From Candidatus Kuenenia hertensis (lineage in GTDB: Bacteria; Planctomycetota; Brocadiia; Brocadiales; Brocadiaceae): DNA of 64,000 nucleotides. Below, piece by piece: positions 32,178 through 61,193 of this stretch. The number at the start of each line of letters is the position of its first letter. Position 1 is the first letter of the stretch. Below the pieces are notes generated by a model that was not told where the DNA came from, made no database searches, and saw nothing but the letters and a program-made list of their open reading frames with translations. The position numbers and the translations under genes were made by a program. The stretch lies in NCBI GenBank assembly GCA_021646465.1, contig SOET01000011.1, positions 1 through 64,000 on the forward strand. Reading direction: 5' to 3'.

Positions 32178-32261
32178 GAATGTATGATAAACGAGTTTTT
32201 TCCAGAAAGGAATATTTGTAATACTTTAGCTTTTTGAAACACCAGCGGTTTCTGCTTGCTT

Positions 32262-32347
32262 GTTCCCAAACTCCTGTTTGGGAACACAATTTTAAAGAGA
32301 AGCTCAGTTTCTCGTCTATTTACGCTCCCAAACAGGAGTTTGGGAGC
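32262..32347. repeat. Two inverted copies of a 24-base palindromic repeat
   Basis: Two hairpins at 32262-32285 and 32324-32347. Each has arms of the type CCCAAAC and GTTTGGG around a six-base centre (CTCCTG in the first, CAGGAG in the second), with GTT/AAC or GCT/AGC ends. A 20-base core of the second is the exact reverse complement of the first, so the pair also forms one larger inverted repeat. It marks the left edge of the toxin-antitoxin/restriction island. Confidence 0.75.
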
Positions 32348-32626
32348 GAGCAGATTAAATTTATTTTTCAAAATACTAAACTGTTACAAATATCTTTATT
32401 GTATATTACCCCAAAATGTTCGCAACGTAATTGTTATAGATTCATTTTATATTGAAAATCTGGCATTACACATTATATGAGGAGATGCACATGCCCGCAA
32501 TCCGAAAACGTGGTCACTTGGTCTATATTATGACTTGGTTTTTATACAGGATGATTTTAATTGTTGCACTAATATCAAAATGCTATCATATTAAATCATC
32601 GATATTTGAGAAGATAATAATAATCC

Positions 32627-39761: not shown

Positions 39762-39827
39762 TATAGTACGGTTTTTACCTTGCATTTCAAAAATTATTTA
39801 CTTACTATAATTCAACGATGTGCGTAA

Positions 39828-39956
39828 CTATTCAGCATATTTGTTACACACCCCTAAATCCCCTCTTAATAGAGGGGACTTACTCGTTTTTATGAAACGT
39901 ATGCAAGGTAATCCCCTCTAAAAAGAGGGGTGGCAGCGTAGCTGACGGGGTGTGTA
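39828..39956. repeat. Miniature inverted-repeat element, copy 1
   Basis: About 130 bases beginning CTATTCAGC, with ACACACCCC(T) near the left side and GGGGTGTGT at the right. It contains two CCCCTCT/AGAGGGG hairpins and the phrase GGCAGCGTAGCTGACGGG. The same blocks occur in the element at 58717-58863, reversed. No coding capacity. Confidence 0.75.
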
Positions 39957-39964
39957 TATTTTTG

Positions 39965-40036
39965 TGCTGTTAGGAGTTTCCTCCTCTGACAGCAATCTAT
40001 GCCGTATCAAGGCGGCAGGAGGTAACTCCTGCCGCC
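39965..40036. repeat. Two hairpins downstream of element copy 1
   Basis: The second (40011-40036) has 11-bp perfect arms, GGCGGCAGGAG and its complement, around GTAA. The first (about 39965-39993) pairs GCTGT..AGGAG with CTCCT..ACAGC and is imperfect. Both share the AGGAG/CTCCT core. Confidence 0.65.
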
Positions 40037-40136
40037 ACTGTTCATAAATTTTAGAAAAACAGATTTGTCTGACTGTATAATTCTACAATGTGTTATTATT
40101 TATTAAATGTAATAAACTAATATGGGAGAATGTTCT

Positions 40137-46714: not shown

Positions 46715-46720
46715 AAATTA

Positions 46721-46755
46721 CCTATTCAGCGTAATTCATAACACACCCCTAACTC
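46721..46755. repeat. Partial end of a miniature inverted-repeat element
   Basis: CCTATTCAGCGTAATTCATA followed by ACACACCCCTAA, the same end as the element at 58717-58863. The other half is missing. It lies just after the HD-GYP gene and about 180 bases before the truncated outer-membrane efflux gene. Confidence 0.65.
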
Positions 46756-58382: not shown

Positions 58383-58716
58383 CTAGAATCCTTGTAATGT
58401 TTACCATACCAAGCGTGTTTTTCCGGGTTGTTCCTGCGTATTACGAACAAGGAAATCATCAAGCTAAGCAAAAATGGAAAATGCAAAATAGGAGATTATT
58501 GACGGAATAAAAGAATGGATTGTTGCAATATCAAAAACGGCAAAAAATAATATGTTTTCAAGAATAAGGAAAGCAGTGCGTTACATGGGGAATGCTCCTC
58601 TTATATGTTGCCCTTATCAACTATTATCTTGAATTTAATTTCCTTTTGACTCATAATAATTTTCCGATAAGGCTTCGGTGAGGGGATTAAGATGGGTGTC
58701 AAAACCTTCCATAAAT

Positions 58717-58863
58717 GTATCTATTCAGCGTGTTAATACACATCCCGTCAGCTACGCTGCCACCCCTCTTTTTAGAGGGGAAGATGGGAAGTAGAGACGC
58801 AATGCATTGCGTCTCTACAAGAGGGGATTTAGGGGTGTGTTATAAATTACGCTGAATAGATAC
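58717..58863. mobile_element. Miniature inverted-repeat element with nested palindrome, copy 2
   Basis: A 147-base element with perfect 15-base terminal inverted repeats GTATCTATTCAGCGT (58717-58731 and, inverted, 58849-58863). It is flanked by CCATAAAT and TCATAAAT, a likely target duplication. Inside are CCCCTCT/AGAGGGG stems and a separate perfect 28-base palindrome (58791-58818, half-site GTAGAGACGCAATG). It has no coding capacity and ends 52 bases before atpD. Confidence 0.82.
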
Positions 58864-58906
58864 TCATAAATAATAGTTTTTCCGGAGCAATTCATAGAGT
58901 GAATGA

Positions 58907-60685
<1,779 letters not shown>

Positions 60686-61023: not shown

Positions 61024-61193
61024 TATAGTCAAATAAATTTGATTTTCGAATGTTTACACACCCCTAAATCCCCTCTTGATAGAGGGGACTTGCCTTCTCT
61101 CCCCTCTATTAAGAGGGGCAGGGGGGTGTTTCGTCAAATAAATCTATTTTTTCAAAAAGCTTAATTTTCGAAAATCAAATTTGTTTGACTATA
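61024..61193. mobile_element. Miniature inverted-repeat element within the ATPase operon, copy 3
   Basis: A 170-base element with 27-base terminal inverted repeats (61024-61050 and 61167-61193) that differ at one position; the outer part reads TATAGTCAAA, the inner part ends TTTTCGAA. The centre carries ACACACCCC, CCCCTCT/AGAGGGG stems and GGGGGGTGTTT, the same core as the elements at 39828 and 58717, but with different ends. It separates atpQ from atpR. Confidence 0.78.

What the first reader, a model, noticed from the sequence alone, without database searches (positions are those of the whole stretch)
58709..58871. Miniature element with perfect ends, probable 8-bp target duplication and a nested palindrome just before atpD
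The element has 15-base perfect ends flanked by CCATAAAT/TCATAAAT, and contains an unrelated 28-base perfect palindrome that interrupts the core seen in the copy at 39828. This shows one small element inserted in another. Its end lies about 50 bases from atpD, so it may supply or disturb the promoter. A transposase with matching ends is expected elsewhere.
Basis: seen in the sequence. Interest (0 to 1): 0.58.

Follow-up and report, generated by a model that had tools for sequence, protein, structure and literature searches.

The report
IS66-type mini-transposon carrying swapped palindrome
A 147-base non-coding mini-transposon, moved by the transposase of a larger insertion sequence (IS66 family), landed in the leader of an ATP synthase operon of an anammox-type bacterium, and one of its inner hairpins had earlier been replaced by a small palindrome that recurs, often in place of other hairpins, all over these genomes.

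Summary
Window 58717-58863 is a 147-bp element with 15-bp perfect inverted ends, a 7/8 target duplication and a 28-bp perfect palindrome, 52 bp before atpD. It belongs to a large family. In the home genome, 25 of 44 compiled end pairs have a perfect 8-bp duplication; no other length of 5 bp or more occurs, and 0 of 1,892 cross-pairs match perfectly. The source enzyme is identified: an IS66-family (ISBst12-like) element with the same ends and 8-bp duplications. It is broken in this genome and intact in the same-genus genome, whose length equals that of Kuenenia stuttgartiensis MBR1. The nearest atpD relative lacks the insertion. The element sits in the leader, downstream of a conserved promoter-like site, so it probably does not supply the promoter. 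The nesting is less simple than proposed: the palindrome was not just inserted, it replaced 11 nt (one arm and the loop) of a hairpin, before this copy moved, because other copies share the junction. The same palindrome class replaces hairpins in four other repeat contexts and sometimes joins halves of different repeats. The MITE is a new member of a known kind; recurrent hairpin replacement is the unusual part, and its mechanism is unknown.

The parts
58709..58716 (.). left target duplication CCATAAAT
   Evidence: 7/8 match with right copy
58717..58731 (+). left terminal inverted repeat GTATCTATTCAGCGT
58738..58746 (+). 5' side of the inner core stem (ACACATCCC)
58763..58780 (+). core hairpin CCCCTCT-TTTT-AGAGGGG
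58791..58818 (.). 28-bp perfect palindrome standing where palindrome-free copies have TCCCCTCTATC (5' arm and loop of a second CCCCTCT/AGAGGGG hairpin)
58819..58841 (+). 3' part of core, with the surviving arm AAGAGGGG of the replaced hairpin and GGGGTGTGT closing the core stem
58849..58863 (-). right terminal inverted repeat
58864..58871 (.). right target duplication TCATAAAT
58629..58657 (+). promoter-like TTGAAT-17-CATAAT, conserved as TTGCAT-17-TATACT upstream of atpD in same-genus genome G001; upstream of the element
58916..60304 (+). atpD (ATP synthase beta subunit) whose leader holds the element
39824..39960 (-). related copy of the core with one degraded end (39824-39838), palindrome-free, different inner spacer

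Best explanation
The feature is a non-autonomous mini-transposon (MITE) with the ends of an IS66-family, ISBst12-like insertion sequence. SHOWN: shared 15-bp ends, 8-bp target duplications, a full-length but broken IS66 copy in this genome, intact copies in the same genus, many dispersed copies, and no element at the site in the nearest atpD relative. INFERRED: the IS66 transposase recognises the ends and moves the element in trans; it inserted into the leader of the atpD operon, duplicating 8 bp, one base of which later changed. The 28-bp palindrome entered the family before this copy moved, replacing the loop and one arm of a core hairpin (replacement shown by comparison; the route, template switching or conversion between extruded hairpins, is inferred). 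If the conserved upstream promoter is used, the element is transcribed as a large folded leader of the atpD mRNA and would alter stability or translation rather than start transcription.
For: Ends and palindrome. 143 v 2 end matches. TSD statistics: 25 of 44 perfect, 35 of 44 at 7/8 or more, no identical flanks at lengths 5-7 or 9-13, cross-pair control 0 and 15 of 1,892. IS66 transposase PF03050 in a 1,721-bp copy at G000:C78:12559-14279 with ends 2 and 1 mismatches away and TSD GTTTATCA. Of 30 transposase loci read, 16 have an end pair and 10 of these a perfect 8-bp TSD; G001 copy L266 has ends GTATCTATTCAGCGA and GTATCTATTCAGCGT. Pfam DDE_Tnp_IS66 5e-50 on its 473-aa ORF. Of 12 atpD loci read, only the window's has the paired ends. 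Palindrome-bearing copies aligned with 11 palindrome-free ones. Fold -75.6 kcal/mol, z -10.7.
Against: No transposition was observed. The only IS66 copy found in the home genome is broken, so present mobility would need a copy missed by the 89-contig assembly. The MITE and the IS share only about the terminal 15 bp (compare), so direct descent by internal deletion is not shown. Of the 44 pairs, 9 have fewer than 7/8 flank matches. The promoter scan found 3 sites against 1.9 expected, so the promoter rests on conservation in one relative.
Confidence: 0.88

Rival explanations
1. The ends belong to a transposon of another family (IS256, IS4 and similar) and the match with IS66 is coincidental.
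For: The MITE and the IS share only the terminal ~15 bp.
Against: Ends within 0-4 mismatches at the outer edges of a ~1.7-kb unit in 16 of 30 IS66 loci, with perfect 8-bp TSD in 10; TSD length is the same in MITE and IS.
Confidence: 0.04
2. The palindrome inserted into the MITE as its own tiny mobile element by ordinary insertion, followed by deletion of the neighbouring hairpin arm because nested palindromes are unstable.
For: The palindrome is dispersed: 49 places, 16 of 56 held copies with both flanks unique, and it lies in several unrelated repeats. Palindrome instability is established knowledge.
Against: No target duplication noticed at the palindrome edges; replacement rather than addition in all five repeat contexts compared, with no intermediate seen.
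Confidence: 0.35
3. The palindrome is a REP-type element mobilised by a REP-associated tyrosine transposase (RAYT).
For: It begins with GTAG, the tag of GTAG REPs (PMC3733652, abstract and passages read), is 28 bp and is dispersed. Y1_Tnp genes exist in these genomes.
Against: 0 of 30 Y1_Tnp loci fetched (of 58 matches) have GTAGAGACG within about 1.5 kb. In REPs the tag is unpaired; here it is paired.
Confidence: 0.08
4. The element supplies or controls the atpD promoter and was kept by selection.
For: Position 52 bp from atpD; strong fold.
Against: Conserved promoter-like site lies upstream; the element is one of many scattered copies; relatives keep the gene without it.
Confidence: 0.07

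Closest known systems
IS66 family, ISBst12 group (e.g. ISDge4 of Deinococcus geothermalis, PMC12898284, passages read)
   Same: ISDge4 ends GTGACTACTCAGCA / GTAACTGCTCAGCA against GTAACTATTCAGCG here; 8-bp direct repeat; single transposase ORF (449 aa there, 473 aa here)
   Different: The window element has no transposase ORF of its own and shares only the ends with the insertion sequence
Bacterial MITEs (MITECca01, PMC9769881; MITEPsy1, PMC3189936; passages read)
   Same: 100-240 bp, non-coding, inverted ends matching a resident insertion sequence, copies inside other mobile elements
   Different: Those derive from IS982 and possibly IS5; here IS66, and with an exchangeable internal hairpin
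Small dispersed repeats (SDR) of Nostoc (Elhai et al. 2008; recalled, paper not held; SDRs named in passing in PMC3116915)
   Same: From recall: 21-27 nt, hairpin-forming, found inside mini-transposons, paired changes in the arms
   Different: Sequence unrelated as far as recalled; replacement of an existing hairpin is not something I recall for SDRs
GTAG-tagged REPs (PMC3733652, abstract and passages read)
   Same: Short dispersed palindrome starting with GTAG
   Different: Tag paired rather than unpaired; no such palindrome near the 30 Y1 transposase loci tested

Membership tests
MITE | short, no transposase ORF, terminal inverted repeats | tested here: met
   147 bp, 15-bp perfect ends; no ORF of 80 aa or more within it
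MITE | target duplication of constant length across copies | tested here: met
   8 bp only: 25 of 44 perfect; this copy 7/8
MITE | ends match an autonomous element | tested here: met
   IS66 copies in G000 and G001
MITE | mobilised in trans by that transposase | not testable with these tools
   needs a transposition assay
IS66 family, ISBst12 group (for the partner element) | DDE_Tnp_IS66 transposase | tested here: met
   PF03050 5e-50
IS66 family, ISBst12 group (for the partner element) | single ORF rather than several | tested here: inconclusive
   One long transposase ORF in L266 (ORFs of 200 aa or more only); small accessory genes were not sought
IS66 family, ISBst12 group (for the partner element) | ends like those of ISDge4 and 8-bp duplication | tested here: met
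   10 of 16 end-paired loci, from 30 read, have a perfect 8-bp TSD; ISDge4 ends
GTAG REP / RAYT system (palindrome) | unpaired GTAG tag beside the hairpin | tested here: not met
   GTAG pairs with CTAC
GTAG REP / RAYT system (palindrome) | copies flank a Y1 transposase gene | tested here: not met
   0 of 30 loci read, of 58 matches
SDR-like small mobile palindrome | dispersed copies with compensatory arm changes | tested here: met
   centres AATGCATT, ATTGCAAT, ATGGCCAT, ACGGCCGT; 21 of 41 copies with exact outer arms are perfectly palindromic, the other 20 have one mispair
SDR-like small mobile palindrome | recent insertion shown by empty sites | tested here: inconclusive
   One orthologous unique site read: a different palindrome at the same place in G002, no empty site

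The most novel reading that the evidence does not exclude
The GTAGAGAC...GTCTCTAC palindromes are interchangeable hairpin modules of anammox-lineage genomes. They spread by replacing pre-existing hairpins (loop plus one arm, or most of the hairpin) in unrelated repeats, and also replace one another at orthologous sites, by a hairpin-directed template switch or conversion. In doing so they act as joints that splice halves of different repeat families into new mini-transposons.
Probability: 0.3. Interest if true: 0.65.

Novelty: new variant of a known kind. Interest (0 to 1): 0.4.

Why it matters
It gives an IS66/ISBst12-type MITE with its partner transposase and a clean 8-bp rule in a lineage whose genomes are known to be rearranged by transposases (PMC7709395, passages read). 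More interesting is a testable question it opens: whether short palindromes can spread by swapping with existing hairpins, which would explain how mini-transposon cores are built as mosaics and how palindromes stay palindromic.

Tried and rejected
RAYT/REP origin of the palindrome: rejected on 0 of 30 loci and on the paired tag. Rfam: no family reaches threshold in the window. Literature look-up by the letters GTAGAGACGC: the search reports 19 papers, of which the 10 listed are, by title, not about this repeat. Anammox plus MITE, insertion sequences or palindromic repeats: nothing describing this family in the listings; the two Kuenenia genome papers were read in passages only. Orthologous empty sites for the palindrome: one 13.4-kb region with three palindromes compared with G001 and G002; only one site was clean, and a G001 match at the same query stretch was not orthologous. 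G002 has no close atpD of this type, so the site without the element rests on G001 and more distant genomes. The leader sequences of G001 and the window align poorly outside the promoter-like stretch and the gene, so the exact empty target is not resolved.

Limits of the counts: end pairs were compiled only from fetched stretches (60 stretches, 237 kb), not from the whole genome, and only about the first 100 of 143 end places were listed. The palindrome pattern used missed the degenerate copy at C69:15744 listed. Six end pairs were dropped as spurious combinations before the 44-pair count. Of the six composite copies that keep IS66-like ends, only C3:59193 (8/8) and the window copy (7/8) show a good duplication; C49 and C79 score 4/8 and 3/8, and C75 and C69 did not pass the end threshold.

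Full report
What is there. Window 58717-58863 is 147 bp with 15-bp perfect inverted ends and a 28-bp perfect palindrome, flanked by CCATAAAT and TCATAAAT, 52 bp before the atpD ORF. As RNA the stretch folds into one closed structure in which the ends pair, the core stem pairs inside them, and the inner hairpins, the palindrome among them, branch off (-75.6 kcal/mol, z -10.7, 0 of 200 shuffles as good).

It is one of a family. The home genome (G000, 4,171,735 bp, 89 contigs) has 143 end matches with up to 2 mismatches, control 2. From the stretches I fetched I compiled 50 end pairs and dropped 6 as spurious combinations. Of the 44 left, 25 have identical 8-bp flanks and 35 have at least 7 of 8; no pair is identical at lengths 5-7 or 9-13; pairing left flanks with the right flanks of other elements gives 0 perfect and 15 at 7/8 or better among 1,892. 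The 44 include one IS66 copy. The ends also occur in relatives: 32 of 59 genomes (the home genome counted) with up to 1 mismatch, control 0 in all.

The partner. IS66 transposase (PF03050) gives two matches in G000, both parts of one broken gene. Around it lie the same ends, making a 1,721-bp unit at C78:12559-14279 with the perfect duplication GTTTATCA. With one piece as query, 18 of 59 genomes matched at E <= 1e-20. Of the 30 loci fetched, 16 have an end pair around the gene and 10 of those a perfect 8-bp duplication. In G001 (same genus) the ends of L266 are GTATCTATTCAGCGA and GTATCTATTCAGCGT, the latter identical to the window's. G001 is 4,406,153 bp, exactly the length published for Kuenenia stuttgartiensis MBR1 (PMC5854607, passages read), so the window is very probably from a Kuenenia relative; this naming is an inference. 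The ends and the 8-bp repeat fit the ISBst12 group of IS66 as described for ISDge4 (PMC12898284, passages read). Past the first 15 bases the MITE and the IS differ.

The atpD site. Of 12 atpD-type loci read with close flanks, only the window's has the paired ends. In G001 a 39-bp stretch matches window 58628-58666 at 79% and holds TTGCAT-17-TATACT against TTGAAT-17-CATAAT at 58629-58657. From the second hexamer to the start codon there are 259 bases in the window, 104 without the element and one duplication, and 142 in G001. So the element lies in the leader, downstream of the likely promoter. The scan alone is not significant (3 sites, 1.9 expected).

The palindrome. It occurs at 49 places in G000 (up to 3 mismatches, control 0) and, with a free 8-base centre, in 31 of 59 genomes of the relatives set and 12 of 294 genomes drawn across the phylum, 11 of them in the home family (both counts include the home genome). 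Aligned with 11 palindrome-free copies, the window copy and six others (C49, C3, C79, C75, C69, C10) show GGGAAG-[palindrome]-AAGAGGGG where the free copies have GGGAAG-TCCCCTCTATC-AAGAGGGG (small variations between copies; one palindrome-free row, C61:93990, differs more): the palindrome replaces one arm and the loop of a hairpin. Because several copies at different places share the junction, and C3:59193 has a perfect duplication, the composite moved as a unit.

The same happens elsewhere. In the ~269-bp members of this MITE family, GCGAG-AAACCGGAGTTTCTCG-AACAA becomes GCGAG-ACTT-[palindrome]-AACAA. In three further repeats, CACGGACAAAC-GGAGTTTG-TCCGTG, GAGAAAC-TGAGTTTCTC-GTCC and TGCTGTTAGGA-GTTTCCTCCTCTG-ACAGCA each lose their loop and 3' arm or part of it. 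All five replaced segments belong to hairpins by folding. A sister 29-bp palindrome, GTAGAGACAGGTTT-N-AAACCTGTCTCTAC, sits at the same core site in C42 and C58, and a differently centred 28-bp palindrome in C26 replaces mainly the arm. Several of these altered MITEs have perfect 8-bp duplications: C2:12639, C33:352, C79:98396, C26:9613, C42:53703.

Joints. Of 56 palindromes held, 31 have both flanks in repeat clusters, 9 one flank, 16 none. Two join flanks otherwise found with other partners: C31:15787 and C76:65588. At one orthologous unique site, after a gene end that reads like gyrB (recalled, not tested), G000 has the 28-bp and G002 the 29-bp type.

Against this reading: the repeats are hairpin-rich, so a palindrome landing in one will often hit a hairpin; the direction of change rests on palindrome-free copies in other genomes and on their greater number; the third and fourth contexts rest on one to three palindrome-free copies each; only one orthologous site was clean; and insertion followed by deletion cannot be excluded. 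I therefore hold the MITE/IS66 reading firmly (0.88) and the exchange mechanism loosely (0.3).

Noticed in passing
window 61024-61193: A second mini-element inside the ATP synthase operon: a related CCCCTCT/AGAGGGG core between quite different inverted ends (TATAGTCAAATAAATTTGATTTTCGA), so this core type travels with more than one kind of end.
   Followed up: partly
window 32257-32350: Palindrome-free copy of another repeat (CCCAAACTCCTGTTTGGG arms around a GAGAAGC-TCA-GTTTCTC hairpin), the form that elsewhere carries the 28-bp palindrome.
   Followed up: partly
window 39960-40040: Directly beside the degraded copy at 39824 lies a further repeat (TGCTGTTAGGAGTTTCCTCCTCTGACAGCA ... GGCGGCAGGAGG), also found with the palindrome at C33:10711.
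   Followed up: partly
window 46718-46732: An isolated end-like sequence, 2 mismatches, followed by MITE-like sequence; its other end was not sought in detail.
   Followed up: no
L381:12355 (G000 C43:86654) and G002 C51 near 7410: Two different palindromes of the same class at the same place after the same gene in two species: apparent replacement of one hairpin by another.
   Followed up: partly
G000 C31:15787 and C76:65588: Palindromes joining halves of two different repeat families.
   Followed up: partly
G194: A distant genome of the phylum has five copies of the palindrome, all with centre ACGGCCGT, possibly transferred.
   Followed up: no
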